Source of the DNA: Rhodocyclaceae bacterium
GTDB lineage: Bacteria; Pseudomonadota; Gammaproteobacteria; Burkholderiales; Rhodocyclaceae
Direction: 5' to 3'
NCBI GenBank assembly: GCA_020445745.1
Contig: JAGRGB010000029.1
Span: 222,165-286,164 of the forward strand
DNA: 64,000 bases
The notes beneath the pieces were generated by a model, which saw nothing but the letters and a program-made list of their open reading frames with translations, was not told the DNA's origin and searched no databases. The translations under genes were made by a program, and so were the position numbers. This document shows, piece by piece, positions 29,426-54,438 of this stretch (its first letter is position 1; every line of letters starts with the position of its first letter).

Positions 29426-30856
<1,431 letters not shown>

Positions 30857-30867
<11 letters not shown>

Positions 30868-31606: not shown

Positions 31607-31616
31607 CGCGCGCGCC

Positions 31617-32864: not shown

Positions 32865-32883
<19 letters not shown>
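32572..32883 (-). CDS. atpQ: AtpQ (AtpI-like N-ATPase assembly protein)
   Basis: A 103-residue protein with a charged N-terminal third and two membrane helices (TVLGYTVFLGSIAGLLVVPV about 40-59 and SVRWTVSLIVLGVVFGAINV about 77-96), the AtpI/AtpQ pattern. It is thought to help assemble the c ring or move Mg2+. It overlaps atpC by 19 bp and atpB by 4 bp. The usual partner AtpR is not found on either side. Confidence 0.82.
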
Positions 32884-34663
<1,780 letters not shown>

Positions 34664-34904
34664 TCATCCTACGCCGGCCGTGGCGACCGGGCTTGAGAAA
34701 GGTCAGAAAGGCTCGCGGCCGCCAAGCAGCGACGGCGAACGGGATCGCCGACGCAGGCGCCAGCTGCCGGTGCCGCGAGCCGGGCCGGAATCGGATCTCG
34801 GCGGCTGGACTCGGGGTGCCGGCAGGGCGGCACGACGGCTCGCGAGACGCCCGGGCGGATTCTCGATCCCGGCCCGAATCGCGGGCGCGGGCCGGACCAC
34901 CGCG

Positions 34905-39506: not shown

Positions 39507-39507
39507 G

Positions 39508-40299
39508 CTACTTGACCGCCCTGACCAGCATCATCGAGTCGGCCCACCAGGCGTCGCGAACGTCCGGCGGCAGATCGAGGCCATCGAAGCGCCGCAGCTC
39601 GATCGAGCGGAAGTGGTTCAGCAGAGCGCGCTGGTGCCCGCGCGACAGCGAATCGATCTCGTTGCTGAGGTAGGTGAAGATGCCGCCGTCGACCAGATGG
39701 GCCGCGGCGTGCTCGAAGAAGTGCTCGGCGAATGTCGTGCTGCCGGCGATGTGGTCGATGAATTCCTCCTCGTCGAGCGGGTAGGTGTGGAACAGCACGC
39801 CGTCGAAGCGGCCGAGCTCCGGCAATGCGTCCTGCCACAGCCCGGGCACCAGCCGGATCGTGCGCTCGGCATGCGTCGCACGCCAGCGCTCGAAGCGTTC
39901 GCAGATGCTCGCGTTGCACTCGATGATGGTGTGGGAGCGCGCGCCGAGCTGTTGGATGAAGCCGGCGGAGATGCCCCGTCCGAACCCGATCTCGAGGACG
40001 TCGCCGTGGTGCTCGCAGGCGATTTCGGCGAGTGCCTTCATCAGCGGGATCTGCCAGTCTTCCATGATCTCGTCGTCGGCCAGCGCAACCTGGCTGCGGT
40101 CGGCGAGGGGCAGCGACTCGCTGCCCGGCACGAGGCGCGCGGCAATCCGGTCGAGCGCCCGCAACTGATCGACGACCTCGGCCATCAGGCCGTTGAGCAA
40201 CCAGTTGCGCTGGCTGTCGCGCGGAGGCCGCACGAAACCGTCGCGGCGGATTTCCAGGTTCAGTTCGAAGTCCGCAGTGCGCTTGCGCTTTCTCGTCAT
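39508..40299 (-). CDS. SAM methyltransferase, guanidinoacetate-methyltransferase-like, between the halves of a split A domain
   Basis: A 263-residue class I methyltransferase. The SAM site is DVLEIGFGRGISAGFIQQLG (about 99-118); EIMEDWQIPLMKALAEIA before it, and HTIIECN, GLWQDALPEL and FDGVLFHTYPLDEEE after it, follow the guanidinoacetate N-methyltransferase pattern. Its ATG overlaps the stop of the upstream NRPS gene (ATGA), and the next NRPS gene begins 1 bp after its stop. In ordinary interrupted A domains a methyltransferase sits inside the protein after motif A8; here the same order is kept as three genes. It likely N-methylates the amino acid of module 2; methylation of a guanidino group is an alternative. 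Confidence 0.85.
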   Translation of the reverse strand: MTRKRKRTADFELNLEIRRDGFVRPPRDSQRNWLLNGLMAEVVDQLRALDRIAARLVPGSESLPLADRSQVALADDEIMEDWQIPLMKALAEIACEHHGDVLEIGFGRGISAGFIQQLGARSHTIIECNASICERFERWRATHAERTIRLVPGLWQDALPELGRFDGVLFHTYPLDEEEFIDHIAGSTTFAEHFFEHAAAHLVDGGIFTYLSNEIDSLSRGHQRALLNHFRSIELRRFDGLDLPPDVRDAWWADSMMLVRAVK

Positions 40300-43190
40300 C
40301 CGATCGCCCCCCCGCGGGCCTGCGGCTCGCCGGCCATCAGGCCCTGCAGCGCTTCGCCGACGCCCTGTTCCGGGAGCGCCTCGATTTCCGCGATCAGGCG
40401 CATCGCGGCGTCTTCGCCGATCGCGGCCAATGCCTCGGCGAGCGCGTCTGCGTCGCCGGACGCTGGCCCGGGATGCTGCCCGGCCGTCGCAGCGACGGTG
40501 ACTGCGGCCTCCCGGACCGCGGGATGGGCCGCCAGCACGGCCTCGATCTCTTCCGGCTCGATCCGGAAGCCGCGGATCTTCAGTTGCAGGTCGCTGCGGC
40601 CCAGGAATTCGAGGCTGCCGTCCCTTCGGCGGCGGGCGAGGTCACCGCTGCGGTACAGGCGGGCCTCTGCGGAAGCAGCGAACGGATCGGCGACGAAGCG
40701 CAGCGCGCTCGCCTGCGGGTCGTCGAGGTAGCCGTCGGCGAGCTTGTCGCCGCCGATGTAGATCTCGCCGCTGGCCAGCGCCGGCACCGGCCGCATCCGG
40801 CTGTCGAGCACGTGGATGCGGGTATTCGGAATCGGTCTGCCGATGCTCGCCCGGGCACCGTCGCTGGTCGCATCCAGGCGCGCGCAGCTTGCCCACACGG
40901 TGGCCTCGGAGGGGCCGTACTCGTTGTACAGCGCGACTTCGGGCAGTGCCTGGCGATGGCGTTCGACGACGGTCGGCGGACAGGCCTCGCCGGCGACGAT
41001 CACGGCTTCGAGCGGGGCCAGCGATCCTGCCGCGGCGTTGTCGAGGATCAGGTCGTACAGGGCGGGGACGCAAAGCAGATGGCTGATCGAGCGCTTGCCG
41101 ATCAAGGCGCACAGTTCCGACACGTCCTGCGCGAGCTGCGGGTGGCCGAGTACCAGCGTGGCGCCGGAGGTCAGGCACCAGTAGATGCCCGCCACCGAAC
41201 TGTCGGTCGTCAGGGGCGAGAGCATCAGGAAGCGGCGCGGCGCGGTCGGATAGAAACGCATTCGCGCGCGGGTCGAGTTGACCAGCGCGCGATGGGAGAT
41301 CATGACCCCCTTCGGGCGCCCGGTCGAGCCCGAGGTATGGATCACGTAGGCGAGCGCCCGGGGATCGACCGGCGGCAGGTTCGCCGTGTCGTCGCCCGGC
41401 GGCCAACTCGCCGGCTCGTCGATCCTCACCACCCGTGCGTGGCGGGCAGGCAGGCCGTCCGCACATTTCCTCGTCGTCAGGGCGATCCCGGGGCCGCGTC
41501 CGCGTTCGACACCGAATGTGCCGTCGAGCAACTGGCCGATGCGTGCGGCGGGCGCCTGCGGATCGATCGGGACGTAGCACGCGCCGGCCTTCAGGGCAGC
41601 GAGCATCGCGACGATCGCGTCGATCGAGCCCGCGGCGACCAGGGGCAGCATCGCCCCCGGCCGCACGCCGGAGGCAAGAAGTGCCCGGGCCAGCCGCTCG
41701 GCACGGCGTTCGAGGTCGCCGTAGCCGAACTCGACATCGCCCTCGACGATCGCCACCGCGTCCGGCAGCCGTTGGGCGGTGGCCGCGATCAGCTCGTGGA
41801 TCGCGCACGGCGGGCCGAGATCGACACCGGTATCGTTCCAGCGCGCGAGCCGCGCCTGCTCGGCGGCCGGCAGCGGCGGCAATTCGCCGACCGGCCGCCG
41901 GGCGTCAACCACCATCGCCTCCAGCGTCGCGACGAGTTGGGCGAGCAGCGCTTCGCTGGCGGCGCCGTCCAGCCGCGCGGGGTCGCGTACCGCGATCAGC
42001 CGCAGCTGGTCGGACGGTACGGCGAGGATCGCCAACGGATAGTGGCTGTACTCCGCGTACATCTCGTCGTCGATCGGCAACCGGCCCGCGTCGAAGTCGC
42101 CGCGCGCCGGAAAACTCTCGAACACGACGATGGTGTCGAACGGCGAGCGCGAGCCGGGCAGCGCGCAGAGACGCTGGAGCGCCGGCAACGGCGTCTGCGC
42201 ATGGGCCTGCATCGCCGCGAGCTCGCTCTGCAACACCCGCAGCCAGTCGGCGAGCGCTTGCGTCGCGGGCAGCCGGACCCGCAGGGGCAGGGTGTTGATC
42301 ATCAGTCCGGCGATCCGCTCGGCGCCGTCGAGCGGGATCGAGCGGCCCGACACGGTGACCCCCACGCAGATGTCGTCGTGCCCGACGTAGCGGCTCAGCG
42401 CGAGCGCCCAGGCACCCAGCACCAGGGTGTTCAGGGTCAGTCGATTGGCGCGGGCGAAGGCGCTCAGCGCCGCCAGGTCGCAGCTTCGCTCGCGTACCGG
42501 GCAGGGATCGTCGCGCGAGGGATGGTCGGGTGCGGGCAGCGCGTCGACGAGTGTCGTCGCGGCCGACAGGCCGCCGAGCCGCGCACGCCAGAAATCCTCG
42601 TCGATGGCGCCGCCCGCGTCGTCGAGCCAGCGGATGAAGCGCTGGTAGGGCACCGGCTGCGGCAGCTTCGCCACGCGTTCGTCACCGTCCGCCCGGTAGA
42701 GCGCGAGCGCTTCGTCGAACAGCAGCCGCATCGACCAGCCGTCGACCAGCAGGTGGTGGAAACTCCAGAGGAACCGGTAGGCGTGGTCGCCGATCCTGAC
42801 CAGCGTGAATCGCATCAGCGGTGCGCGCCCGAGGTCGAATCCATGTTCCCGGTCGCATCGCATCAGGGCTTGCCAATCGCGCTGCTGCGCATCCTCGCCG
42901 GCTGCCCGCCAGTCGAGCTGCCGCCACGGCAGCGCGACCTCGCGGCGCACCACCTGCAGCGGCTTCTCGCGGCCGCGCCACGAGATCAGCGTGCGCATCA
43001 CCGGATGACGGATCGCCACCTGCTGCCATGCGCGCTGGAACCGTTCGGCGTCGAGCGCCTGCCGGATCGTGCACGCGTACTGCTGAAAATAGGCACCGGC
43101 ACGGGCACGCTCGAGGGCGTGGAAGAGAATGCCCTCCTGCAGCGGTGACAGCCGGTAGATCGACGCGATATTCGGGTTGTCCATGGGCAT
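40296..43190 (-). CDS. NRPS C-A(core), A domain truncated after motif A8
   Basis: A 964-residue protein. The condensation domain (SPLQEGILFHAL start; FHHLLVDGWS near 147) is followed by an adenylation core with HTSGSTGRPKGV (about 623), YNEYGPSEATVW, YRSGDLARRR and the A8 motif GRSDLQLKIRGFRIEPEEIE (about 860-879). After HPAVREAAVTVAA comes a low-complexity helical tail, then the stop. Motif A10 with the catalytic Lys, and the PCP, are missing here and are found at the start of the gene at 34905-39506. Pocket residues read by eye, DSALIAEVW, match no code I know; Asp235 is present, so an alpha-amino acid is expected. As the C domain follows an epimerase, it should be of the D-accepting type. 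Confidence 0.92.
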   Translation of the reverse strand: MPMDNPNIASIYRLSPLQEGILFHALERARAGAYFQQYACTIRQALDAERFQRAWQQVAIRHPVMRTLISWRGREKPLQVVRREVALPWRQLDWRAAGEDAQQRDWQALMRCDREHGFDLGRAPLMRFTLVRIGDHAYRFLWSFHHLLVDGWSMRLLFDEALALYRADGDERVAKLPQPVPYQRFIRWLDDAGGAIDEDFWRARLGGLSAATTLVDALPAPDHPSRDDPCPVRERSCDLAALSAFARANRLTLNTLVLGAWALALSRYVGHDDICVGVTVSGRSIPLDGAERIAGLMINTLPLRVRLPATQALADWLRVLQSELAAMQAHAQTPLPALQRLCALPGSRSPFDTIVVFESFPARGDFDAGRLPIDDEMYAEYSHYPLAILAVPSDQLRLIAVRDPARLDGAASEALLAQLVATLEAMVVDARRPVGELPPLPAAEQARLARWNDTGVDLGPPCAIHELIAATAQRLPDAVAIVEGDVEFGYGDLERRAERLARALLASGVRPGAMLPLVAAGSIDAIVAMLAALKAGACYVPIDPQAPAARIGQLLDGTFGVERGRGPGIALTTRKCADGLPARHARVVRIDEPASWPPGDDTANLPPVDPRALAYVIHTSGSTGRPKGVMISHRALVNSTRARMRFYPTAPRRFLMLSPLTTDSSVAGIYWCLTSGATLVLGHPQLAQDVSELCALIGKRSISHLLCVPALYDLILDNAAAGSLAPLEAVIVAGEACPPTVVERHRQALPEVALYNEYGPSEATVWASCARLDATSDGARASIGRPIPNTRIHVLDSRMRPVPALASGEIYIGGDKLADGYLDDPQASALRFVADPFAASAEARLYRSGDLARRRRDGSLEFLGRSDLQLKIRGFRIEPEEIEAVLAAHPAVREAAVTVAATAGQHPGPASGDADALAEALAAIGEDAAMRLIAEIEALPEQGVGEALQGLMAGEPQARGGAIG

Positions 43191-46100
43191 CTATCCGCTG
43201 CCGTCGTCGAGGTCGGCGAGCAGATCGTCGAGCTCGTCCTGGCTCAGGTCGGCGTCCGGAAAGTCCTCGGCCAGCAGCGCGGCGGTGCCCTCGTCGCCGA
43301 TCGCGGCGAGCGCCTCGAGGCGCGCCAGCGTGGCCTGCGAGAGGGCGGCGATACCGGCCTCGTCGATGCGTTCGGCGGCATGCCATTCGATGCGCAATTC
43401 GCCGGCGAAGATCATCGCGTCGATCGCCACCGGGGCCAGCCAGCGCTCGGGCGGCACGCCACCGGCGGCGAGGGGGCGGGCGAGGCCGAAGCGGCTCGCG
43501 TCGCCTGCGTGTCGATCCCACTGGCCGAGGTAGTTGAAGAGGATGCCTGCCGGCGGCTGGGCGCGAAGCGAACCGGCCTCGCGATCGCCACAGAGCTCAC
43601 GCGCCACCCCGTAGCCGATGCCGTTGCGGGGAACCGCCTGCAATTGCGTCAGCAGTGCTTGCAGGTCGGATCGCAGCGCGCCGCTGGCGGGGCGCCGCAG
43701 CGTCAGCGGATGGATCGAGGTGAACCAGCCGACCGTCCGGGTCGGCGTCAGGTCGTCGTCGATCTGCTCACGGCCGTGACCCTCGACGTCGATTCGCACC
43801 GAGTCGCTGGCGAGCCAGTCGGCCAGCGGCTCGATCAACGCCCACAGCAGGAGATCCGGCATGCGCGCGCGCCGCCTGCCGGCGACGCCGCGTCGCAGCC
43901 GCGACGTGGCGTCGCGGCCGAGCTTGGTGGCCAGCGTGAAGCGACCGCGACGTGGATGCGGCTCGGCCGCTGCCGGCAGGCGCTGCTCGCCGGCACCGCT
44001 GGTGCTCCAGAACGGGATCTCCGCGCGCAGCGTGTTCGAAGCGGCGTGCGCTTCGAGTGCCTCGCCCCATTGCCGGACCGAACAGGTCTTCGGCGGCAGG
44101 CGGGGGGTGGCGCCACGCTCGATCGCCTCGCAGGCGGCCTCCAGGTCGTCGAGCAGGATCCACCACGACACGCTGTCCACCACCAGATGATGGATCGCGA
44201 CCGACAGCAACTGGTTGCGGTCGGCCCCGCCATCGAACAGGCAGGCAGCGACCAGCCGGCCGGCACCTGGTTCGAGGCGCCGCGTGAGTTCGTCGAGCCG
44301 ACGCTCGATGATCGTCTCGCGGTCGGCATCGGCGAGGCCGGAGAGGTCCGCGCGGACGAACTCGACGCTCGTCGAACCGGGCGCTGGGAGCCACTGGCGC
44401 CATTGTTCGCCGTGCCGCTCGAAGCGGCTGCGCAGCGCGTCGTGGTGGGCAAGCAGGACCTCGAATGCCCTGGCGAGCGTCTCCGGCCGGGTGTGCGACC
44501 GCAACTCGAGGAGAACCGACTGATGGTAGCTGCTGGCGTCGGTCCCGGCCGTCGCGAGGAATCGCCGTTGCACCGGGGTCATCGGCACGGCGCCGGTGAT
44601 CGCTCTCGCGTCGTGCCCGGCCGCGGTGCCGGGTCGCGCGACCCGGGCGAGTTCGGCGATCGTCGGGTAATCGAAGATCTGCTGCGGGCTCAGTCCGATG
44701 CCGGCCTTGGCGGCGCGCGCGACGATCTGGATGTTGAGGATCGAGTCGCCGCCCAGTTCGAAGAAGTCGTCGGTCGCGCCGACCCGTTCGACGCCGAGCA
44801 CCTGCGACCAGATCGCGGCGAGCGTCCCTTCCAGCTCGCCGGTCGGCGCCCGGAAGTCGCGCGCCTGCGCGTCGGCAGCGTCGTCCGGAGCGGGCAATGC
44901 ATCGCGGTCGAGCTTGCCGTTGGCGGTCAGCGGCAGCGCCGCGATGCGGACGAAGCGTCGCGGCACGAATTCGCTCGGCAGGCGTTCGGCGAGCCATTCC
45001 CTCAACTGCGCCGTGGCCACGTCGGCGCTGGCCGCGAAGTACGCGGTGAGACTGGTTTCGCCGAAGCTCGCGGCGTTCTCGACCGGTTCGTAGCCGACTT
45101 CGTGCAGGATCCGGCGGACCTTGTCCGCGTCGATCTCGTCGTCGAGCTCGGCGAGCGCCGCCGCGCGCGCCTTGTGACCGAGACGGACGTCCCAACTGTA
45201 GGGCAGGGCGTAGTTGTGGTAGCCGCGCTCGAGCTTGTGGACGTGGATGCCGACCTCGTTGATCAGGCAGTTGGTGGAGCGACCGGTGTCGATCGGCCGT
45301 GTCCAGCCGATGCGATCGCGCAGGTAGCGATAGACTTCGTCGAGTTCGACCTCGCAGTAGCGGTAGAAGTCGACGAAGCGGATCTCGTCGAAGATGTCGT
45401 CACGGTCGAAGATGCCGGTGTCGAGTCGGCGCGCGACCGTGTCGTCCATGCGGTGGTAGATCTTGCGTGCCTCGATCACCGCGCGGTCGATCGCTGCCGC
45501 ATCGCTGATGCCCTGGCGCAGCATCCCGGCGATTCGGGTCTCGAAGATCTGCCCGCGCGACAGACCGGTGAAGATTGCACCGATGCCCCGCTGGTGCGCG
45601 ATCTTGGTGCTCAGCGTGTAGATCACCTTGAAGCAGCCGTTGCAGACATTGCTGAAGCGTCGCAGGCTGTCCGCGAAGATTTCGTTCATCGCCTCGGTGG
45701 AGCCCTCGACGAGGTCGAGACCGAGCTGGTCGACGACGCGTCGGATGTTTGCCTTCGCGCCCTCGGCGATGTAGCCGTTGTCGAGTGTGAACACCAGCGG
45801 CCGCAGGCCGAGGTCGACCAGGCGGGCGAGGGCGTAGGTCGAATCCTTGCCGCCCGAGAGCAGCATCATCGCGTCGTGGGTACCCGTCGCTGCAGCCTTG
45901 ATGCGTGCCACCAGATCGCGCAGTTCGTCCAGGTCGCGGAAATAGGCCGCGGCCTGGCTGTGCTCGTGGTCGTAGTCGCGACAGACCCGACAGACGCCAT
46001 CGGCGTCGAGCATCGCGTCCGGGTGCCTGGACGAGAGGCCGCAGCGCACGCAGAAGCTCGTGCCTTCGTCTGCCGCGTTCAGTTCCCGGCGCGACGCCAG

Positions 46101-48770
46101 CACCGCGCATTCGTCGACCCGTGGGTGTTGCAGGAGGGCAGCCTCGACCTCGGCGGGTTCCACGCGCACGCCGCGGATCTTGACCTGCTGATCCGCCCTG
46201 CCGAGATATTCGAGCACGCCGTCCGCCCGCCAGCGGGCCCGGTCGCCGCTGCGGTAGAGGTGTCCGCCAGGATTGGACGGATCGGCCGCGAAGCGCTCGG
46301 CAGTGAGCTGCGGGCGGCCGAGATAGCCGCGTGCGACACCGGCGCCGGCGATGCACAGATCGCCGCTGACGCCGGGAGGCTGTGGATGCCCGCCGGCATC
46401 GAGGACATGGATCTGCAGTCCGTCGATCGCCCGCCCGATCGGCACCGAGACATCGGTATCGGCCAGCGGATCGAAGCGGTGGATCATGCAGCCCACGGTG
46501 GCCTCGGTCGGGCCGTATTCGTTGTAGATCGCGATCCGCTCGCCGAAGGAGCGGCTGATCGTGCGGGCGAGTCCGCTCTTCAGGTCCTCGCCGCCGAGGA
46601 TCAGCGCGCGAATTCTCGAAGTCGACAGATCCACGCCTTGCAGTGTCGCGAGGTGCGCCGGCGTGAGCTTGACGATGTCGACCGCGTCGTCCTCGACGAT
46701 GCGACGGATAGTCATTTCGCGGCCGCCGGAGGGCGGCTGGTAGACGACGATGTGACCGCCGGAAACCAGCGGCACGAAGATCGACGTGACGGTCAGATCG
46801 AAGGCCAGCGACGAGAACAGCGGGAAGGCCAGCGCTTCGCCGGCGGTATAGTGGCTTGCCGCCCAGCCGACGTAGTTGGCGAGGTTGTCATGGCCCACCA
46901 CCACGCCCTTGGGCGAGCCGGTCGAACCCGAGGTGTAGATCAGGTAGGCGACGTCGGCTGCCGACACCGCGGGCAAGGGCTTCGGCGCCGGCGCGATGCC
47001 GGTCAGCGACGACTGGTCGTCGAGCTGGACGACCCGCCTCGTCGGTGGCACCGAACGTTCCAGGCCGGGGCCACAGATCGTCACCGCGACGTCGGCATCA
47101 GCGACGATGAAGGCGATGCGCTGGGGCGGACATGCCGCGTCGATCGGCAGATAGGCGCAGCCAGTGCGCAGCGTGGCCAGGATCGCCACCACCGCATTGA
47201 TCGAATGCGGCATCAGCAATGCGATGCGCCCACCCGGACGCACGCCGAGCGAGATCAGCTGGCGGGCGAGATGCTCGCTGCGCCGGTCGAGCTCCTGGTA
47301 GCTCAGTTCGCTGCCGGCGCACAGCACTGCCCGTCGTCGCGGATCGGCCCGGGTCCGCGAGGCGATCATGTCGAGCACGGTCGCCGGGCGGGACGGTGGC
47401 GTCGGACGCGGGCTGAAGCGCGCGACCAGGTGCCTTGCCTGGTCGGGCGACAGCAGCGCGACCCGGTCGATGGCGCACGCCGGCTCGTCGAGGAAGGCGT
47501 CGAGCAGGCGCAGGAAGTGCTGCCCGGGCCATTGCCGCTCGTCACCGACGAAGCAGTCCTCGTTGAGGTCGAAGAACAGCTCGTAGTCGCCGCGGCGATC
47601 GAAATCGACGACCTGCAGGCGAAGCAGGTGGTTGCGGTCGCCGTGGCCGGCATGCACCCAGTGCGAGCGCGTCGGCAGTCCGTCGAAGTCGCCGAACGAC
47701 GCGGTGATGAAGTTGAGCACGACGTCGAAGGCGCGCTTCTGCGTGTAGCCGCCGGCACCCGCGACGGCGTGCAGCAGGAAGTCGCGGGTGGCGTCGGCGA
47801 CGCGCGCATACAGGGCCTCGAAGCTGTCGCCGGCCGTGACCTGCACGCGCAGGGGCAGCACCTCGATGAATGGCCCTGGCGTCTGCTTGAGGCGCCGGGA
47901 CGGTCGGTTGTGCGACGGCGTGCCGATCGCCAGCGCGTCGTTGCCGCTGATCCGATGGATGAAGGCGAACAAGGTCGTCGCGAAGATCTGGAACACCGAC
48001 AGGTCCCGGGTGAGGCTGCGAAGGCCTTCGCGTTCCGCGAGGGCGCGGATCCGCTCCGAGCGTGTCCTGCCGAGCGGGCACGGGACGCGCGTGGTCCGGC
48101 CGCCGTGGTCGCGGGGCGTACGGCGGTAGAAACGGGTCGGCACGAACGGTGCCGCCTGGCTTGACTGCCAGTACGCCCGGGCCTTGTCGCGCAGCCGCGC
48201 GTCGCCGGGTCCGATGCCGCCGCCCAGGTGCTCGAGGAATCCCGGTGGCGCCTCCGCGCAGGCGAGACGGCCCTCGCGGGCGAGTCGGTAGCAGCGCTGC
48301 AGGTGCTCGTAGAGCACTGCGACCGACCACGCGTCGGTCATCACGTGATGCTGGTTGAAGAACCACGCGTGCGAGTCCTCGCCCAGTTTCACCAGCACCG
48401 AGTCGAAGCTGCAGCGGCCGAGGTCCACCATGCGTCGCGCACGGGCCTCGACCCAGACGGCGAGCGCGGCATGCGGATCCGCTTCGCCGCTGAGATCGAT
48501 CCGCTGCAACGCGATGCCCGTTGCGCCGAGGCGCTGGCACGGCACTTCGGCCGAGCCATCGATCACCATGCGCAGGATGTCGCACGAGACGACCAGCCTG
48601 TCGAACGCGATCGCGAAGATCTCCTCGTCGAGCGGGCCGTCGATCTCGAAGCACAGCGCCATGTTGTACAGCGGCTCGCCGGCCTGCAGGCGCTGGCCGG
48701 TCCACATCGCGAGCTGGTTTGCGGCCAGCGCGAAGGATTCGCCGCTGCGGGCGCCGGTGTCACCCGCCAT
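43191..48770 (-). CDS. NRPS C-A-PCP-E with a zinc-ribbon/PP-loop ATPase inserted in the A domain
   Basis: An 1859-residue synthetase. Its C domain has HHVMTDAWS instead of HHxxxDG. The A core has YTSGSTGSPKG (about 612), YNEYGPTEATVG, YRSGDRARW and A8 GRADQQVKIRGVRVEPAEVE (about 855-874). At residues about 895-1240 an unrelated domain is inserted: a zinc ribbon (CVRCG about 906, CRVC about 926), the PP-loop MLLSGGKDSTYAL (about 963-975), a CNGC pair (about 1041) and GYHNYALPYSWDVRLGHK (about 1180). The A domain then resumes (LTAYFA ... LPLTANGKLDR about 1283), followed by PCP (FFELGGDSILNIQI, about 1342) and an epimerisation domain (HHLVVDSVSW about 1530, DVEGHGRE). Pocket residues DLTKIGEVG match the Asn code. 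The inserted domain resembles N-acetyl-sugar amidotransferase-type and other adenine-nucleotide alpha-hydrolases. Confidence 0.93.
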   Translation of the reverse strand: MAGDTGARSGESFALAANQLAMWTGQRLQAGEPLYNMALCFEIDGPLDEEIFAIAFDRLVVSCDILRMVIDGSAEVPCQRLGATGIALQRIDLSGEADPHAALAVWVEARARRMVDLGRCSFDSVLVKLGEDSHAWFFNQHHVMTDAWSVAVLYEHLQRCYRLAREGRLACAEAPPGFLEHLGGGIGPGDARLRDKARAYWQSSQAAPFVPTRFYRRTPRDHGGRTTRVPCPLGRTRSERIRALAEREGLRSLTRDLSVFQIFATTLFAFIHRISGNDALAIGTPSHNRPSRRLKQTPGPFIEVLPLRVQVTAGDSFEALYARVADATRDFLLHAVAGAGGYTQKRAFDVVLNFITASFGDFDGLPTRSHWVHAGHGDRNHLLRLQVVDFDRRGDYELFFDLNEDCFVGDERQWPGQHFLRLLDAFLDEPACAIDRVALLSPDQARHLVARFSPRPTPPSRPATVLDMIASRTRADPRRRAVLCAGSELSYQELDRRSEHLARQLISLGVRPGGRIALLMPHSINAVVAILATLRTGCAYLPIDAACPPQRIAFIVADADVAVTICGPGLERSVPPTRRVVQLDDQSSLTGIAPAPKPLPAVSAADVAYLIYTSGSTGSPKGVVVGHDNLANYVGWAASHYTAGEALAFPLFSSLAFDLTVTSIFVPLVSGGHIVVYQPPSGGREMTIRRIVEDDAVDIVKLTPAHLATLQGVDLSTSRIRALILGGEDLKSGLARTISRSFGERIAIYNEYGPTEATVGCMIHRFDPLADTDVSVPIGRAIDGLQIHVLDAGGHPQPPGVSGDLCIAGAGVARGYLGRPQLTAERFAADPSNPGGHLYRSGDRARWRADGVLEYLGRADQQVKIRGVRVEPAEVEAALLQHPRVDECAVLASRRELNAADEGTSFCVRCGLSSRHPDAMLDADGVCRVCRDYDHEHSQAAAYFRDLDELRDLVARIKAAATGTHDAMMLLSGGKDSTYALARLVDLGLRPLVFTLDNGYIAEGAKANIRRVVDQLGLDLVEGSTEAMNEIFADSLRRFSNVCNGCFKVIYTLSTKIAHQRGIGAIFTGLSRGQIFETRIAGMLRQGISDAAAIDRAVIEARKIYHRMDDTVARRLDTGIFDRDDIFDEIRFVDFYRYCEVELDEVYRYLRDRIGWTRPIDTGRSTNCLINEVGIHVHKLERGYHNYALPYSWDVRLGHKARAAALAELDDEIDADKVRRILHEVGYEPVENAASFGETSLTAYFAASADVATAQLREWLAERLPSEFVPRRFVRIAALPLTANGKLDRDALPAPDDAADAQARDFRAPTGELEGTLAAIWSQVLGVERVGATDDFFELGGDSILNIQIVARAAKAGIGLSPQQIFDYPTIAELARVARPGTAAGHDARAITGAVPMTPVQRRFLATAGTDASSYHQSVLLELRSHTRPETLARAFEVLLAHHDALRSRFERHGEQWRQWLPAPGSTSVEFVRADLSGLADADRETIIERRLDELTRRLEPGAGRLVAACLFDGGADRNQLLSVAIHHLVVDSVSWWILLDDLEAACEAIERGATPRLPPKTCSVRQWGEALEAHAASNTLRAEIPFWSTSGAGEQRLPAAAEPHPRRGRFTLATKLGRDATSRLRRGVAGRRRARMPDLLLWALIEPLADWLASDSVRIDVEGHGREQIDDDLTPTRTVGWFTSIHPLTLRRPASGALRSDLQALLTQLQAVPRNGIGYGVARELCGDREAGSLRAQPPAGILFNYLGQWDRHAGDASRFGLARPLAAGGVPPERWLAPVAIDAMIFAGELRIEWHAAERIDEAGIAALSQATLARLEALAAIGDEGTAALLAEDFPDADLSQDELDDLLADLDDGSG

Positions 48771-49023
48771 GGCCCGGGCCCCGATCGTCCATCAGCCGTC
48801 GCAGGTAGCTGCCCAGCGCGTTGATGTCGCGGAAATTCTCGACCGTGAAATCGGTCGGCGGGATCTTCCTGCCGGCCAGCTCCTCCATGTGCGAGACCAG
48901 CCGCAACATGCCGAGCGAGTCCACCATGCCGTCCCTGAGCAGGTTGTCGTCGTCCGTGATCTGGTCGTCGCCGCTCAGCAGCTCGTCGACGATGAAGCGC
49001 CTGATGGCCTGTTTGCTGTCCAT
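48760..49023 (-). CDS. Free-standing peptidyl/acyl carrier protein (starter unit)
   Basis: An 87-residue four-helix carrier. The phosphopantetheine Ser is in RDGMVDSLGMLRLVSHMEEL (about 36); the acidic start MDSKQAIRRFIVDELLSGDD is typical of PltL/RedO/PigG-type carriers. It lies 2 bp after a stand-alone adenylation gene and overlaps the NRPS by 11 bp, so all three are coupled. It should carry the amino acid that the acyl-CoA-dehydrogenase-like enzyme then oxidises, and pass it to the first C domain. Confidence 0.92.
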   Translation of the reverse strand: MDSKQAIRRFIVDELLSGDDQITDDDNLLRDGMVDSLGMLRLVSHMEELAGRKIPPTDFTVENFRDINALGSYLRRLMDDRGPGHGG

Positions 49024-49025
49024 GC

Positions 49026-50621
49026 TCAACCTGCCTGGGTGGTCGGGATTGCGGTCGCGGCCATCAGTTCGGCGCGCAGCGCGCGGCGGTCGATCTTGCC
49101 GGTACTGGTTCGCGGCAGCTCGGCCCGGATCTCGAGCCTCGCCGGCACCGCGTACCACGGCAGCCGCCCGCGTGCGTGCCGTGCAATTTCCCGCGCCCTG
49201 GCCGACGCTCCGTCGCGCAGGCGCAGCGCAGCGGCGATGCACTGGCTCGCTGCCCCGTCCGGGATGGTGACCGCCCCGGCCTCGGCCACGGCCGGGTGTG
49301 CGGCGAGCGCCGCCTCGACCTCGTCGAGCTCCACGCGGTAGCCGCGCACCTTGACCTGGCGATCCTTGCGGCCGACGAAGTGGAACATGCCGTCGTCGTC
49401 GACACGTACCAGATCCCCGCTACGGTAAAAGACATCGGCATGGGAGCCGCCGACCGGGCGGCGGAAGAATGCGGCGGCGTCGAGATCCGGACGCCGCCAG
49501 TAGCCCTGCATCATCGTCGCGCTGCGGATCAGCAGCTCGCCGACCTCGCCGGGGGCGACCGGCTGGTCTGCACCGTCGACGACCAGCGCTTCGGCGTTGG
49601 CGCTCAGCCGGCCGATCGGGATCGACTCCTGGTCGGCCCGCAGCGAGCCCACGGTGTAATGGGTGACTCCGTTGGTTTCGGCCGGCCCGTACATGTTGTC
49701 GAAGCGGACGTGGGGCAGTGCCTCGATCAGCGCGCGCAGTTGCGGCAGCGGAAACGGCTCGCCGCCGAAGACCGCCCAGCGCAGCGCCGACAGGTCGCGT
49801 TGCTCGAGCGCACCGTGGTGCAGCAGCTGGATCAGGGCGAACGGCACGGCAAACAGCACGGTGACCCGCTGCTCGGCGAGCAGCGCCGAGTAGCTCGCCG
49901 GCACGCGGGCGTGTTCTTCGGGGATGATCGACGTCGCGGCGCCGGCCAGCGCGCCGGCGAAATAATCGAAGATCGACAGGTCGAAGTGCAGCGGGGCGTG
50001 ATTGCTGAGGCGATCGTGCTCGCCGAGGCCGTATTCGGACACTGCCCAGCGGGCGAAGCTCAGCCCGCTGTGATGGGTATGCATGATGCCCTTTGGCTTG
50101 CCGGTCGATCCCGAGGTGTAGATGATGTAGGCGAGATCGCTGTCGACGATGGTCCGTCGCGGCGGCGCGTCGGCCGCAGCGTTGCAGACTTCGGCCCAGC
50201 CGATCGACGGCACCGCCAGCGTGCCCGCCTCGATTCCGACCACCGAGGCGATGTCGGCGCCAGCCTCGAGCACGGCATCGAGCCGGCGACGCATCGTGTC
50301 CGCGCTGAGCAGGCGGCGGATGCCGCTGTCCGCGATGACGCCGGCGGTGCGCCCGGCAGGCGCCGACGGGTCGAGCGGCACGAACGCCGCGCCGGCCTTC
50401 ATGATGCCGTACATCGCCAACGGCACTTCGAGCGACTTGTCCAGGTAGATGCCGACCGGTTCGCGGCGGCAGACGCCTTGGGCGACGAGGCAATGGGCGA
50501 GTCCGTTGGCGCGGGTGGACAACTCGACGTAGCTCAGCGCCCGATCGAGAAAGCGCACCGCTTCGCGCCGTGGATCGCGCCTGGCGACATCGTCGATCAG
50601 GTGGGGGATGAGGTGGATCAT
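49026..50621 (-). CDS. Stand-alone adenylation enzyme (L-prolyl-AMP ligase-like, PltF/PigI type)
   Basis: A 531-residue ANL-fold ligase: IIYTSGSTGKPKGIMHTHHS (about 168-187), DNMYGPAETNGVTHY, FYRSGDLVRVDDDG, GRKDRQVKVRGYRVELDEVE and ELPRTSTGKIDR (Lys near the C-terminus), a complete enzyme without PCP. Placed next to a free carrier and a PigA/PltE-like dehydrogenase, it matches the three-gene set that makes pyrrole-2-carboxyl starters from proline. Pocket residues read by eye (DLFFVGMGV) differ from the proline code of PltF, so another amino acid is possible. An ornithine-cyclodeaminase-like gene in the cluster could supply proline. Start ATG 50619-50621. Confidence 0.88.
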   Translation of the reverse strand: MIHLIPHLIDDVARRDPRREAVRFLDRALSYVELSTRANGLAHCLVAQGVCRREPVGIYLDKSLEVPLAMYGIMKAGAAFVPLDPSAPAGRTAGVIADSGIRRLLSADTMRRRLDAVLEAGADIASVVGIEAGTLAVPSIGWAEVCNAAADAPPRRTIVDSDLAYIIYTSGSTGKPKGIMHTHHSGLSFARWAVSEYGLGEHDRLSNHAPLHFDLSIFDYFAGALAGAATSIIPEEHARVPASYSALLAEQRVTVLFAVPFALIQLLHHGALEQRDLSALRWAVFGGEPFPLPQLRALIEALPHVRFDNMYGPAETNGVTHYTVGSLRADQESIPIGRLSANAEALVVDGADQPVAPGEVGELLIRSATMMQGYWRRPDLDAAAFFRRPVGGSHADVFYRSGDLVRVDDDGMFHFVGRKDRQVKVRGYRVELDEVEAALAAHPAVAEAGAVTIPDGAASQCIAAALRLRDGASARAREIARHARGRLPWYAVPARLEIRAELPRTSTGKIDRRALRAELMAATAIPTTQAG

Positions 50622-50637: not shown

Positions 50638-51786
50638 TCACAGCCCGAGCAGGCCGGCGATGATGTTGCGCTGGATGTCGGAGGTGCCGGCGTAGATCGT
50701 GCCGCCGATCGCGTCGCGCAGGTCGCGTTCGATGCCCGACTCGCTCATGTAGCCATGCGCACCGTGCACGCGAATCGCGTCCATGCTCGAAGCGGTGAAG
50801 CATTCCGACAGGTGCAGCTTGAGCATCGCCGTCTCGAGCAGCGCCGGTCGGTCCTGCATCTTCAGCCAGGCGGTGCGGTAGAGCAGCAGGCGCGAGGTCT
50901 CCAACCGCAGCCTCATGTCCGCGATACGGTTGGAGACCGACTGGAACTTGCCGATCGGCTGGCCGAACTGCTCGCGGCGCCGGGCGTGGTCGATGCAATC
51001 CTCGAGCTGTCTTTGCATCGCGCCGAGCTGGCTGGCCAGGATGCAGCAGCGTTCCCATTCGAGAAATCCGGTCGACAATGCGACGCCGGCCCCCTCCGCG
51101 CCGAGCCGTTCGTCGTCGGCGACGAAGCAGTCGTCGAAATGGATCTCGCCCAGCGGCGCGGTGCGCAGGCCCATCTTGTCGCGTGCGGGCCCGCAGCGGA
51201 ACCCCTCGCGCCGGCGGTCGACGAGGAATGCGCTGATGCCCCACTTGCCGAGGGACGGGTCGGCATTGGCGAACACCAGCGCGACATCGGCGACCGGCGC
51301 CAGCGACACGAACTGCTTGATGCCGTCGAGGCGATAGCCGCCGTCGACCCGGCGCGCCCGTGTACGCAGGCTGAACACGTCGGAGCCGGACTCCGGCTCG
51401 GTGATCGCGTGCGCGCCGATCAGGCTGCCGTCGCACAGGCCGGGGAGGTAGCGCGCCTTCTGCGCGTCGCTGCCGAAGTGCACGATCGGCAGCTGCACCG
51501 TCCATATCTGCGCGTTGAGTGCGAACGCAAGGCCGTTGTCGCGGCAGCCGTAGCCGAGGCCTTCCATGATCAGGATCGCGGTAAGGAAATCGGTGTCGCT
51601 GGCGCCTCCCCAGCGTTCCGGCACGGACAGCCCCTGCAGGCCGAACTTCGCGCACCTGGCCCACAGCGCCCGACTGAACGTGCCGCTCTTGTCGCGTTCG
51701 CAGACGTCGTCCGCGAGTTCGCGACGGGCAAAGTCGATGACCCGTTCCTTCAGCGCGATCTGTTCTTCGCTCCAGTCGAAATCCAT
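50638..51786 (-). CDS. Acyl-CoA-dehydrogenase-like prolyl-carrier oxidase (PigA/PltE/RedW type)
   Basis: A 382-residue flavoprotein. QFGQPIGKFQSVSNRIADMR (about 292-311) and TIYAGTSDIQRNIIAGLLGL at the C-terminus follow PigA-type enzymes closely, as does LGYGCRDNGLAFALNAQI. Such enzymes oxidise carrier-bound proline by four electrons to pyrrole-2-carboxyl. I use ATG 51784-51786 (MDFDWSEEQ) with a GAGGAG ribosome site; an in-frame ATG at 51846 would add 20 unconserved residues and overlap the gene upstream. The adenylase follows 16 bp after the stop. Confidence 0.9.
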   Translation of the reverse strand: MDFDWSEEQIALKERVIDFARRELADDVCERDKSGTFSRALWARCAKFGLQGLSVPERWGGASDTDFLTAILIMEGLGYGCRDNGLAFALNAQIWTVQLPIVHFGSDAQKARYLPGLCDGSLIGAHAITEPESGSDVFSLRTRARRVDGGYRLDGIKQFVSLAPVADVALVFANADPSLGKWGISAFLVDRRREGFRCGPARDKMGLRTAPLGEIHFDDCFVADDERLGAEGAGVALSTGFLEWERCCILASQLGAMQRQLEDCIDHARRREQFGQPIGKFQSVSNRIADMRLRLETSRLLLYRTAWLKMQDRPALLETAMLKLHLSECFTASSMDAIRVHGAHGYMSESGIERDLRDAIGGTIYAGTSDIQRNIIAGLLGL

Positions 51787-51812
51787 CGCATCGCTCCTCG
51801 ATCGGCGCGCGA

Positions 51813-53009
51813 TCAGCTGATCGCCGCCAGCACGCGGTTCATCCATTCGCCGGCGGGCAGGTCGACCTCGAATGCGCGCTCGACGAACCAGTAGCTCGCG
51901 ATCGCGATCAGGCCGGCGGGACCCAATCGCAGTACCAGGCGCGGGTAGAACCAGGCGCTGCGCGACAGGTACAGAATCGGAAAGATTGCCGCGACCACCG
52001 CGATCTGTCCGACTTCGACGCCGATGTTGAAGGCGAGCAGCGAGTGCACCAGGTATTCCGGCGGAATGCCGATCGAGCCGAGCACGCTGGCGAAGCCGAA
52101 GCCGTGGAAAAGGCCGAAGGCGAACACGATCAACCAGATCCGGCTGCGGAAGATCGGGAACAGGACGTCCAGCGCGGCAATCGCTATCGAAAGCGCGATC
52201 ACCGACTCGACGATGCGCGGTGAAAGGTCGAGCGTTCCCAGCGCCGCCATGCTCAGCGTGATCGTGTGCGCGATCGTGAACACCGTGACGATCTTGATCA
52301 CGTGGATCAGCGAACCGCGGAAATCCGGCGCTGCGCGCCAGCCGTCGCGCCCGCGCCGGACGACCGACGGTAGCAGCAACGCGAACAGGAACAGCAGGTG
52401 ATCGATGCCGTCCCAGATGTGATGGACGCCCAGCTCGACCATGCCGACGAAGCCATCCACGGTCGTCGACGAGGACAGGTCGAGTTGCTGCGAGGTGTCG
52501 TCCGGGCCGAAGATCAGCGACACGACGCGCTCGTTGTTGAAGGTGCTGCTCTTCCAGTTGTTCTCGACCACCAGCAGGCCGCGGTGCTCGGGCAGGACGT
52601 CGAACGCGGCGCGATACTCGACATCCAGCCGTTCCGGCATCTGCGCGAATTCGCCGAGGTCGAAATCAACCGAGACGTACTGGGCAATCCGTACGTCGAC
52701 GAGATGAAAGCCGCGAATTCGCATCTCGCGGGCAGTGCCGTCAGGGGCGAAATGCGCCCGTTGGCGGAGATACGCATAGATGCGTTCGGCGTGGGGTTCG
52801 ACATCGGCTCGTGTGACCTGGTGGTCGGTGCGAAGGTCGAGACCGAAGACCCGGTTGAGATCGCTCATGTTGATCTCGATCCGCCCGGCGATCGCGTGCT
52901 CGCTGAAGCTCAGAAAGATGTGGCTGCGCTCCAGCTGGTGGGCCCAGCCCGTCAACGGGAGCAGGCATCCGAGGACCAGCAGAAGAATCGCCGTACGGCA
53001 CGCCGTCAT
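51813..53009 (-). CDS. HupE/UreJ-like membrane protein with a periplasmic N-domain
   Basis: A 398-residue protein. A signal peptide (TAILLLVLGCLLPLTGWAHQ) is followed by an extracytoplasmic domain of about 180 residues and then seven or so membrane helices bearing HupE/UreJ family motifs: GVHHIWDGIDHLLFLFALLL, FTIAHTITLSMAALG and FGLFHGFGFAS. The conserved His and Asp suggest metal handling; HupE/UreJ proteins have been linked to nickel. First gene of the NRPS operon, 26 bp before the dehydrogenase gene. It might export or take up a metal or a metal-bound product; this is inference. Start ATG 53007-53009; a longer frame upstream lacks support. Confidence 0.82.
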   Translation of the reverse strand: MTACRTAILLLVLGCLLPLTGWAHQLERSHIFLSFSEHAIAGRIEINMSDLNRVFGLDLRTDHQVTRADVEPHAERIYAYLRQRAHFAPDGTAREMRIRGFHLVDVRIAQYVSVDFDLGEFAQMPERLDVEYRAAFDVLPEHRGLLVVENNWKSSTFNNERVVSLIFGPDDTSQQLDLSSSTTVDGFVGMVELGVHHIWDGIDHLLFLFALLLPSVVRRGRDGWRAAPDFRGSLIHVIKIVTVFTIAHTITLSMAALGTLDLSPRIVESVIALSIAIAALDVLFPIFRSRIWLIVFAFGLFHGFGFASVLGSIGIPPEYLVHSLLAFNIGVEVGQIAVVAAIFPILYLSRSAWFYPRLVLRLGPAGLIAIASYWFVERAFEVDLPAGEWMNRVLAAIS

Positions 53010-53348
53010 GTGAGTCGCCTTCCGAGCTGTTTGCCGCCGCTGGAGCACAACACGAAAACGGCCCGCCAGAGCCTGCGATTGCACAACCGCGAAGGATCAC
53101 CTCTTAGGAAAGCACGGCCAGCTTCGATACTTGTGTGCAACTTTGCACGCTGTCGGGCCGACTTCCGCTATGGCTGCCTCCGCATTCGGCGGCAGTATAG
53201 GTGTCGCTGGCCGACGCGGCGAAGCGGCGGCTCCCGGACCGGGCCATGATTCTCCTTCGGCTGCCAGCACACGAGACACCGCACGCATCGGACGCCGGGA
53301 TTCATGCCTACGGCGCTCGATACGAAACACAGCCGAGTCCGAGCACCA
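53010..53348. promoter_or_regulatory. Divergent promoter region of the NRPS cluster
   Basis: The 339-bp gap must hold promoters for the long minus-strand operon and for the cyclodeaminase gene. It contains a perfect palindrome GTGCAA-CT-TTGCAC at 53135-53148 and another TTGCAC half-site at 53079-53084, a candidate operator. No gene is supported here. Confidence 0.55.
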
Positions 53349-54431
53349 ATGAGAACGAACGTATTCACCGTCGCGGACATCAGGACCATCGTGCGTGACG
53401 TGGGCATCGACGGATTGATGGACGAGGTGATCGCTCGCCTCACCGAGGTATGCAAGGATTTCGATCCCGACGCATACGCGATACCGGTCCGCGGCGGGTT
53501 CGACTATCGCTGCCCGGATCTCGGTCTGCTCGAGTGGATGCCGGCGCTCGAGATCTCGCGAAGCGCGACGCTGAAGGTGGTCGGCTACCATCCCGCCAAT
53601 CCGCGCCGCCGGGCTCTGCCGTCGATCCTGTCCACCACGCTGTCGTTCGATACCTCCAGCGGCCACCTCGCGGCGCTGATGGACGGGACGTTCGCGACCG
53701 CCCTGCGCACCGGCGCAGCGTCGGCAGTCGCGAGCCGCGTGCTGGCGGCGCGAGATTCCCGGGTGCTGGGCCTGGTCGGATGCGGCGCCCAGGCGGTCAC
53801 CCAGCTGCACGGGCTGTCGCGGGTGTTCGATCTCGACCAGGTGTTGGTGTACGACATCGAGGCCGGCGCCGCCGCGAGCTTCGCGGGCAGGGTGAAGCCG
53901 CTCGGTCTGGACTCGCTCGACATCCGGGTAGTGCCGTTGGCCGTGCTCGAAGCCTGCTCGGACATCATCTGTACGGCGACCTCGGTCGATCCCGGGATGG
54001 GGCCGGTGATGGGCGACGAATGTCTCAAGCCGGCCGTGCACGTCAATGCCGTCGGCTCGGATTTCCCGGGCAAGACGGAGCTTCCGCCGTCGCTGCTCAG
54101 GCGCAGCCTGGTATGTCCCGATTTTCCGCTGCAGGCGCTGCGGGAGGGTGAGTGCCAGCAGCTGCAGGCGGCGGAGATCGGACCGCAACTGGTCGAGCTG
54201 GTCACCGATGCCGCCCGCTACCGGCGAGCCCGGACCGAGAGTACGGTGTTCGATTCCACCGGGTGGGCCCTCGAGGATCACATCGTGCTCGAGATTCTCG
54301 CGCACCACGGCAGGCGGCTCGGCTGCGGCGCGTGGCTGGAGATCGAGTGCTGCCCGCATGATCCGCGCAGCCCCTATGAATTGGTCTACGGCGAACAGGC
54401 CGGGAAAGCGGCTTCCGGGCAGCCTCGGTAG
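53349..54431 (+). CDS. Ornithine cyclodeaminase / mu-crystallin family enzyme
   Basis: A 360-residue NAD-dependent enzyme. The nucleotide fold is VLGLVGCGAQAVTQLHGLSR (about 138-157), after RTGAASAVASR, and the active-site Asp is in HVNAVGSDFPGKTELP (about 236-251), the pattern of ornithine cyclodeaminases, which turn ornithine into proline plus ammonia. In this cluster it could feed proline to the adenylase; other members make lysine-derived pipecolate or act in diaminopropionate synthesis. I prefer ATG 53349 (MRTNVFTVADIR); 53304 is in frame but adds an unconserved leader. Confidence 0.85.
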   Translation: MRTNVFTVADIRTIVRDVGIDGLMDEVIARLTEVCKDFDPDAYAIPVRGGFDYRCPDLGLLEWMPALEISRSATLKVVGYHPANPRRRALPSILSTTLSFDTSSGHLAALMDGTFATALRTGAASAVASRVLAARDSRVLGLVGCGAQAVTQLHGLSRVFDLDQVLVYDIEAGAAASFAGRVKPLGLDSLDIRVVPLAVLEACSDIICTATSVDPGMGPVMGDECLKPAVHVNAVGSDFPGKTELPPSLLRRSLVCPDFPLQALREGECQQLQAAEIGPQLVELVTDAARYRRARTESTVFDSTGWALEDHIVLEILAHHGRRLGCGAWLEIECCPHDPRSPYELVYGEQAGKAASGQPR

Positions 54432-54438
54432 GGCGGCG

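What the first reader, a model, noticed from the sequence alone, without database searches (positions are those of the whole stretch)
43191..48770. Adenylation domain interrupted by a zinc-ribbon plus PP-loop ATPase domain
After motif A8 (GRADQQVKIRGVRVEPAEVE) the chain leaves the A fold for about 345 residues, then returns to it (LTAYFA ... LPLTANGKLDR). The insert has CxxC pairs (CVRCG, CRVC, CNGC) and a perfect SGGKDS PP-loop. Known interrupted A domains mostly carry methyltransferases, ketoreductases or oxidases at this point. PP-loop enzymes activate a carbonyl or base with ATP for amidation or sulfur transfer. With an Asn-like pocket code, the insert may make Asn from Asp, or convert the amide to an amidine or thioamide while the residue is carrier-bound. 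I do not know a described example.
Basis: partly seen in the sequence, partly recalled or inferred. Interest (0 to 1): 0.93.

Follow-up and report, generated by a model that had tools for sequence, protein, structure and literature searches.

The report
Asparagine-modifying domain inside peptide synthetase
A peptide-making enzyme carries, spliced into its asparagine-loading domain, an ATP-using domain of a kind already known from the antibiotics albicidin and cystobactamid that probably turns the loaded asparagine's amide into a nitrile; less familiar are the widespread gene cluster it sits in and a hint that it holds an iron-sulfur cluster.

Summary
ORF 43191-48770 (-) is C-A-T-E with about 330 residues inserted late in the A domain, holding a Cys ribbon and a PP-loop. 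The claim of no described example is wrong: the insert belongs with the AMDH domain of CysH (cystobactamid) and AlbIV (albicidin). In vitro the CysH domain dehydrates carrier-bound L-Asn to beta-cyano-L-alanine; it also makes isoasparagine (PMC7966384 passages). The insert is 52.5% identical to that of a Xanthomonas albilineans A-insert-T protein, with the same specificity code DLTKIGEVGK. Best reading: ATP-driven dehydration of Asn; Asp-to-Asn, amidine and thioamide are less likely. Two things look new. First, all 83 aligned inserts keep seven Cys; three of them (CxxC...C) recall the [4Fe-4S] site of PP-loop enzymes such as LarE, which would explain the brown colour reported for CysH, whose mechanism was left open. 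Second, inserts occur in 15 phyla, and 67 of 82 sources have at least one of three neighbours (prolyl-type A protein, prolyl-carrier dehydrogenase, HupE/UreJ permease), often with a His-type second module: a cluster type I found no description of, perhaps for a metallophore.

The parts
43191..48770 (-). NRPS protein C-A(AMDH-type insert)-T-E, 1859 aa
47427..48728 (-). condensation domain, residues 15-448
   Evidence: Pfam PF00668
46089..47354 (-). adenylation core, residues 473-894, code DLTKIGEVGK (Asn type)
   Evidence: code positions placed by recalled GrsA numbering
45087..46058 (-). inserted PP-loop domain (AMDH type), residues 905-1228
   Evidence: TIGR03573 E 2.5e-32; 52.5% identity to the X. 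albilineans insert
45981..46052 (-). N-terminal Cys ribbon CVRC...CRVC, residues 907-930, presumed Zn site
   Evidence: 83 of 83 inserts; similar CxxC pairs in stand-alone relatives
45840..45857 (-). PP-loop SGGKDS, residues 972-977
   Evidence: 83 of 83
45633..45644 (-). CNGC, residues 1043-1046, two of three presumed [4Fe-4S] ligands
   Evidence: both Cys in 83 of 83; aligns with CxxC of LarE and of TtcA-type proteins
45267..45269 (-). Cys1168, third presumed [4Fe-4S] ligand
   Evidence: 83 of 83; role inferred
44901..45050 (-). rest of adenylation C-terminal subdomain with LPLTANGKLDR
44643..44825 (-). carrier (T) domain, residues 1316-1376
   Evidence: Pfam PF00550
43221..44588 (-). epimerization-type domain, about residues 1395-1850
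   Evidence: second Condensation stretch; called E by recalled motifs (HHLVVDS, NYLGQWD)
49026..50621 (-). stand-alone adenylation protein, presumed proline-activating
   Evidence: substrate inferred from neighbours
48760..49023 (-). stand-alone carrier protein (start at inner ATG, 87 aa)
   Evidence: PF00550; frame read
50638..51846 (-). dehydrogenase like PigA/RedW prolyl-carrier dehydrogenases (pyrrole-2-carboxyl starter inferred)
   Evidence: NF053553 E 5.6e-123, NF045652 E 1.9e-111, both below cut-off
51813..53084 (-). HupE/UreJ-type permease
   Evidence: PF13795 E 6.2e-46
53304..54431 (+). ornithine cyclodeaminase family protein (possible proline supply)
   Evidence: PF02423; NF005762 below cut-off
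54046..55167 (+). 4'-phosphopantetheinyl transferase; ORF as listed overlaps the gene before it, true start probably later
   Evidence: PF01648 E 1.2e-18, residues 240-323
40296..43190 (-). module 2 C-A core, code DSALIAEVW (His type)
   Evidence: code in the His paragraph of PMC12283262
39508..40299 (-). methyltransferase-like protein between the two parts of the module 2 A domain
   Evidence: no Pfam family; called methyltransferase by eye and a weak NCBIfam match, E 0.085
34905..39506 (-). rest of module 2 A domain, T, module 3 C-A-T (Leu-like code, recalled), thioesterase

Best explanation
The insert is an AMDH-type domain (aminomutase / amide dehydratase) in the A domain of an Asn-activating NRPS module. 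The A domain loads L-Asn on the T domain; the PP-loop of the insert spends ATP to activate the side-chain amide oxygen, and loss of the activated oxygen gives carrier-bound beta-cyanoalanine (isoasparagine as by-product or alternative). I infer that Cys1043, Cys1046 and Cys1168 hold a [4Fe-4S] cluster with one open iron site near the PP-loop that binds or polarises the amide, and that the N-terminal Cys ribbon holds structural zinc. The module sits in an assembly line that probably starts with pyrrole-2-carboxylate made from proline and goes on with a His-type module. Shown here: sequence, insertion site, conservation, Asn-type code, homology to an AlbIV-type protein, neighbours. Shown by others: the reactions of CysH. 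Inferred: the reaction of this protein, the metal cluster, the product.
For: Insert 170 of 324 residues (52.5%) identical to that of the 941-aa A-insert-T protein of Xanthomonas albilineans (L105), which keeps SGGKDS and all seven Cys; code DLTKIGEVGK in both; AMP-binding_C broken at the same profile position, 29, in both. The L105 protein passes Pfam's gathering score for QueC, a nitrile-forming family (25 bits, cut-off 22). PMC7966384 (abstract, passages, section 3 part 2): CysH with its 38-kDa insert (69% identical to AlbIV's) turned loaded Asn (+114) into +96, CysH without the insert did not; purified CysH is dark brown, no CxxCxxxC motif was found, mechanism open; an earlier proposal for albicidin was phosphorylation of the amide oxygen. 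PMC12283262 (passages): the AlbIV A domain has a 342-aa insertion, probably of the nucleotide alpha-hydrolase type; DLTKIGEVGK is compatible with cyanoalanine. No TauD protein (PF02668; CysJ type by recall) in the own genome, two in that of X. albilineans, so the dehydratase branch is expected. Fe-S: first Cys of CxxC at +71 from SGGKDS in 79 of 83 inserts, +68 to +70 in 5 of 5 LarE; of 24 PF01171 proteins the 20 best-scoring (E 2.7e-48 or better, TilS-like) have no CxxC, the 4 weaker (TtcA-like) have one at +74 or +75 (the names are recalled). Profile match to [4Fe-4S] LarE 8cnz E 1e-9 with CNGC on its CxxC. PMC9283937 passages: Thermotoga LarE binds [4Fe-4S] by CXXC-C.
Against: CysH itself could not be fetched, so its Cys were not checked. 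That L105 is AlbIV rests on species, architecture and recall. The window module has a C domain before A and an E-type domain after T, unlike stand-alone CysH and AlbIV, so the substrate may be pyrrolyl-Asn rather than Asn. Without CysJ the cystobactamid line gave Asn, isoAsn and cyanoAla products (PMC7966384), so the nitrile is not certain. A stand-alone homologue beside an Asn synthase gene (L160) has the same seven Cys, and 2 of 22 stand-alone WbuX-like rows have a CxxC after the PP-loop, so the pattern is not special to AMDH. The third Cys is at +196 or +197 in 78 of 83 inserts against +147 or +148 in LarE and +163 or +164 in TtcA-like proteins, and no LarE or TtcA alignment reached it. No model coordinates were available to measure Cys distances.
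Confidence: 0.8

Rival explanations
1. Sulfur insertion: the tri-Cys [4Fe-4S] PP-loop domain replaces the Asn amide oxygen by sulfur (thioamide), giving a soft metal ligand in a metallophore.
For: CxxC...C plus PP-loop as in LarE, TtcA, TtuA; Foldseek neighbours after the sugar amidotransferase 8wex are YcfA, TtuA, LarE; HupE/UreJ and, in 11 of 49 loci of at least 18 kb, TonB receptor neighbours.
Against: In the passages read, the characterised family member CysH makes nitrile or isoasparagine, no sulfur product; no sulfur donor among the 20 neighbour-family representatives scanned with Pfam, which do not cover rarer neighbours.
Confidence: 0.08
2. Aminomutase outcome: in this cluster the domain makes isoasparagine, so that the chain runs through a beta-amino acid.
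For: CysH does this in vivo, also without CysJ (isoAsn linker in the cysJ deletion).
Against: No TauD-type protein in the own genome, and without CysJ the CysH domain dehydrates Asn in vitro; no albicidin with isoAsn is known according to PMC7966384.
Confidence: 0.15
3. Amidine formation, as sugar amidotransferases of the WbuX type do, with ammonia from a glutaminase.
For: Best family match is TIGR03573; full-length profile match to 18 stand-alone relatives, E 7.5e-39; first-reader idea.
Against: Below the family cut-off; CxxC after the PP-loop in only 2 of 22 stand-alone rows; HisF/HisH in the fetched DNA of 1 of 82 loci and not in the window.
Confidence: 0.04
4. Inactive or structural insert.
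For: None beyond the lack of an assay.
Against: 83 of 83 inserts keep PP-loop and seven Cys, 80 of them at 51-67% identity to the query over 15 phyla.
Confidence: 0.02

Closest known systems
AMDH domain of CysH (cystobactamid, Cystobacter velatus)
   Same: about 38 kDa domain inserted in an Asn-activating NRPS module, acts on carrier-bound Asn (PMC7966384)
   Different: CysH is a stand-alone module working with CysJ, CysQ, CysB; the window module is C-A-T-E inside an assembly line, with no TauD-type protein in the genome. CysH sequence not compared here.
AlbIV (albicidin, Xanthomonas albilineans), taken to be L105 6333-9155
   Same: 52.5% identical insert, same insertion point, same Asn code, same seven Cys and PP-loop
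   Different: stand-alone A-T module; no prolyl-A, dehydrogenase or HupE/UreJ seen in its 18.7-kb locus
N-acetyl sugar amidotransferases WbuX (TIGR03573; 8wex of Legionella)
   Same: N-terminal CxxC pairs, PP-loop, full-length profile match, best fold match
   Different: 20 of 22 rows lack a CxxC after the PP-loop; no Cys opposite Cys1168 in the printed row of the profile alignment; insert scores below cut-off
[4Fe-4S] PP-loop sulfur transferases LarE, TtcA, TtuA
   Same: SGGxDS, CxxC at nearly the same distance, third Cys downstream
   Different: insert sulfur in nucleotides or cofactors; only partial profile match; third Cys further away here
QueC and PesC nitrile synthetases
   Same: ATP-driven amide to nitrile step (PMC13060819 passages)
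   Different: weak sequence match (QueC E 0.028 to the insert; 1.6e-5 to the L105 protein)

Membership tests
AMDH domain (CysH/AlbIV) | inserted in the A domain of an NRPS module | tested here: met
AMDH domain (CysH/AlbIV) | close sequence homology to the AlbIV or CysH insert | tested here: met
   52.5% to L105 of X. albilineans; CysH not fetched
AMDH domain (CysH/AlbIV) | A domain activates Asn | tested here: met
   by code only: DLTKIGEVGK, given for cyanoalanine in the Asp/Asn section of PMC12283262
AMDH domain (CysH/AlbIV) | dehydrates or isomerises carrier-bound Asn | not testable with these tools
   needs intact-protein mass spectrometry
TIGR03573 WbuX sugar amidotransferase | score over the curated cut-off of 203.2 bits | tested here: not met
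   112.7 and 117.9 bits
TIGR03573 WbuX sugar amidotransferase | HisH/HisF-type ammonia partner nearby (recalled feature) | tested here: not met
   tblastn: none in the window, 1 of 82 loci
[4Fe-4S] PP-loop enzymes (LarE, TtcA, TtuA) | SGGxDS plus CXXC-C motif | tested here: met
   83 of 83; definition for LarE in PMC9283937; third Cys further away
[4Fe-4S] PP-loop enzymes (LarE, TtcA, TtuA) | bound [4Fe-4S] cluster | not testable with these tools
   brown CysH reported by others (PMC7966384)
[4Fe-4S] PP-loop enzymes (LarE, TtcA, TtuA) | LarE family model TIGR00268 over cut-off | tested here: not met
   16.4 bits against 150

The most novel reading that the evidence does not exclude
AMDH domains are [4Fe-4S] PP-loop enzymes in which an iron with an open site and an ATP-activated amide give nitriles, a catalytic type not described for NRPS domains in anything I read; and the window belongs to a gene cluster family spread over many phyla that makes pyrrole-carbonyl-(cyanoalanine or other Asn product)-histidine peptides, a square-planar metal chelator handled together with the HupE/UreJ permease.
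Probability: 0.35. Interest if true: 0.72.

Novelty: new member of a known kind. Interest (0 to 1): 0.48.

Why it matters
The domain type was described in 2021 with its mechanism open and its cofactor unknown (PMC7966384). The invariant CxxC...C after the PP-loop gives a direct, testable cofactor proposal. The wide spread of one cluster type built round this domain, with a metal-permease-like gene in 37 of 49 loci of at least 18 kb, points to a product family with a common, perhaps metal-related, role; my ten literature searches found no description of it.

Tried and rejected
Thioamide as first choice: I held it after because of the tri-Cys pattern, and dropped it when PMC12283262 tied DLTKIGEVGK to cyanoalanine and PMC7966384 gave the measured reaction. 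Amidine: rejected for lack of an ammonia partner and Cys differences. Asp to Asn: rejected (Asn pocket; CysH does not load Asp). Chalkophomycin as relative: the terms HupE, PP-loop, adenylation domain, asparagine and amidotransferase do not occur in PMC10849742.

Literature: 10 searches. One search, with the specificity codes, found PMC12283262, which mentions AlbIV's insertion; the other nine listed no paper that I recognised as describing it (I read listings, and passages of few papers). I reached the CysH paper through the albicidin link and recall of its DOI. No search was left for later work on AMDH by name or on pyrrole-Asn-His products, so 'not in print' is not shown. PMC8341866 (review of interrupted A domains) and the albicidin structure paper are not held. 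CysH could not be reached: a search of 347 genomes of the phylum of L066 gave matches in 6 (L066's own among them), best 55% identical to the L105 domain; 6 of the 7 places lie in ORFs of 1471-2573 aa and one in a 369-aa ORF.

Weak or failed: tree has 37 of 84 inner branches open, L024 and outgroups are long branches, L105 is not placed; not used as evidence beyond the neighbour tally. One search found no input files and crashed; redone. The site table printed was off by some columns (my offset) and is not used; one search replaces it. The split of PF01171 proteins into TilS-like and TtcA-like was made with the Cys pattern in view; their Pfam scores split the same way.

Rows dropped: L101 (same record as L023) from the neighbour and tree counts; L022 and L024 from the structure alignments; L016, L025 and the NRPS and plasmid rows from the 18-row WbuX profile. 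The 83 inserts include near-copies (L091/L092, L101/L022). Gene calls in the loci were longest-ORF picks, so neighbours are undercounted (the window's dehydrogenase was missed). Label 'Apro' means best hit to the window's stand-alone A protein, not proven proline.

Full report
Observation. The 1859-aa ORF at 43191-48770 (minus) is intact. Pfam and NCBIfam see C, A, T and a second condensation-like (epimerization-type) part; the A domain's C-terminal subdomain is broken between residues about 900 and 1232. With the insert removed, AMP-binding_C matches over its whole length at 44.5 bits against 34.3 with it. The AlphaFold2 model of the A-insert-A-T stretch (72 aligned rows) has mean pLDDT 88.4 and pTM 0.70; its best Foldseek matches are NRPS modules, EntF and LgrA first, and rank 14 is 5wmm, an A domain interrupted by a methyltransferase. 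So the insert appears to leave the A fold together.

The insert. TIGR03573 (WbuX sugar amidotransferase) matches 905-1222 almost end to end, below the curated cut-off. Profile against 18 stand-alone relatives: E 7.5e-39. The model of the insert alone (58 rows, pLDDT 91.5, pTM 0.89) finds 8wex (TM 0.62 by query length), then YcfA, TtuA, LarE. The profile's best solved-structure sequence match is [4Fe-4S] LarE 8cnz (E 1e-9), then 8wex (2e-7); nitrile synthetase 9leh/9lei only at 0.085.

Relatives. One scan of genome contigs found 160 places; the best 80 were kept (51-67% identity). They lie in 15 named phyla (2 of 80 unplaced). In 77 of 82 sources (81 loci and the window) the domain scan sees A, insert and T in one ORF; the others are L024, L049 (contig end), L076 (frame broken), L088 and L104 (missed by the ORF pick; L104 is open). 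Plasmid records gave Roseovarius, Pseudohalocynthiibacter and, with the domain on a separate protein after an A-T protein that looks uninterrupted, Streptomyces sp. NBC_01216. It is rare near the window: only the window's own genome of 6 in the genus (E up to 1e-20) and of 398 in the phylum sample (E up to 1e-40).

Conservation. Over 83 aligned inserts (window, L022, L024, L026-L105; not all independent), SGGKDS and seven Cys are invariant: four in the N-terminal ribbon and C1043, C1046, C1168. C1043 is at +71 from SGGKDS in 79 of 83. In LarE (5 of 5 over the cut-off of TIGR00268) the CxxC is at +68 or +70. Of 24 PF01171 proteins, the 20 with E 2.7e-48 or better have no CxxC and the 4 weaker have one at +74 or +75. 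Among 22 stand-alone WbuX-like rows, 2 have a CxxC after the PP-loop; a further stand-alone protein, L160, next to an asparagine synthase gene, has the full pattern. The third Cys lies further off (+196 or +197 in 78 of 83) than in LarE or the TtcA-like proteins, so its role is inferred.

What it is. All 72 A domains in alignment A5 carry DLTKIGEVGK (46) or a near variant. PMC12283262 (passages) calls DLTKIGEVGK compatible with beta-cyanoalanine in its Asp/Asn section, and notes AlbIV's 342-aa insertion. L105 is Xanthomonas albilineans and holds a 941-aa A-insert-T protein with that same code, 52.5% identical in the insert, which I take to be AlbIV. PMC7966384 (abstract, passages and one part of the text) names the domain AMDH in CysH, shows loaded Asn losing 18 Da only when the domain is present, infers isoasparagine formation from domain deletion in vivo, reports many homologous domains in unknown clusters, a dark brown protein, and an open mechanism. 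The finding is therefore, by sequence, a member of that family.

Mechanism. [quoted passage not shown] The Fe-S part is my inference from the alignment with LarE (PMC9283937 passages) and the reported colour of CysH; its authors looked for CxxCxxxC and found none. No TauD-type protein is in the own genome, which favours dehydration over hydroxylation-linked isomerisation; that CysJ falls in this Pfam family is recalled.

Setting. Next to the NRPS gene lie a stand-alone A protein, a carrier protein and a PigA/RedW-like dehydrogenase (pyrrole-2-carboxyl starter by analogy), a HupE/UreJ-type permease, an ornithine cyclodeaminase family protein and a Ppant transferase. Module 2 has code DSALIAEVW; 55 of 68 A domains of this label across the sources read DS[AV]L[IVM]AEVW, and PMC12283262 has DSALIAEVWK in its His paragraph. 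Of 49 loci of at least 18 kb, 37 hold HupE/UreJ, 34 the A protein, 30 a thioesterase, 27 the dehydrogenase, 25 the carrier protein, 12 the methyltransferase, 11 a TonB receptor. By the tally, 35 of 82 sources have both a starter gene and HupE/UreJ, 18 only a starter gene, 14 only HupE/UreJ, 15 (many on short contigs) none. Forty-eight HupE/UreJ proteins share H222, G226, D228, H229, H273 and H327, metal-binding-like residues. A pyrrole-Asn-His chain recalls the amino-terminal Cu/Ni site of albumin (recalled), so a metallophore is a fair guess, not shown. In the window the chain would go on with an epimerised Asn product, a perhaps methylated His and a Leu-like residue.

Novelty. The interrupted A domain with a PP-loop is known; the cluster family and the cofactor proposal are, as far as my ten searches reach, undescribed. 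Those searches did not look for later papers on AMDH by that name.

Noticed in passing
window 34905-43190: The module 2 A domain is split over three ORFs: C-A core, a methyltransferase-like ORF with 4-base overlap, then an ORF starting with the A C-terminal part. The methyltransferase is a separate ORF in 13 sources and fused behind the A core in L029, L032, L038, L043 and L061 (in L086 behind a thioesterase label); no form with A C-terminal part and T fused on was seen.
   Followed up: partly
L024:16089-20139: Streptomyces sp. NBC_01216 plasmid: AMDH-like domain at the N terminus of a separate protein, after an A-T protein that looks uninterrupted and an asnB gene, in a locus with tyrosine aminomutase and other genes that recall enediyne clusters (the likeness is recalled).
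   Followed up: partly
L160:1441-2520: Stand-alone PP-loop protein with the same seven-Cys pattern beside an asparagine synthase gene and a gene with a weak GNAT match; a possible ancestor type of the inserted domain.
   Followed up: partly
window 51813-53084: HupE_UreJ_2 permease recurs in 48 of 82 sources (81 loci and window), a link between this permease family and an NRPS cluster.
   Followed up: partly
window 29425-34667: ORFs with ATP synthase Pfam domains (alpha/beta, B, delta, C, delta/epsilon) directly downstream of the NRPS genes.
   Followed up: no
window 55819-56952: Phage-integrase family gene next to the cluster; two tRNA-Val genes at 63699-63940. The insert was not found in 5 other genomes of the genus, so the cluster may be mobile; the rest of the cluster was not searched there.
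   Followed up: no
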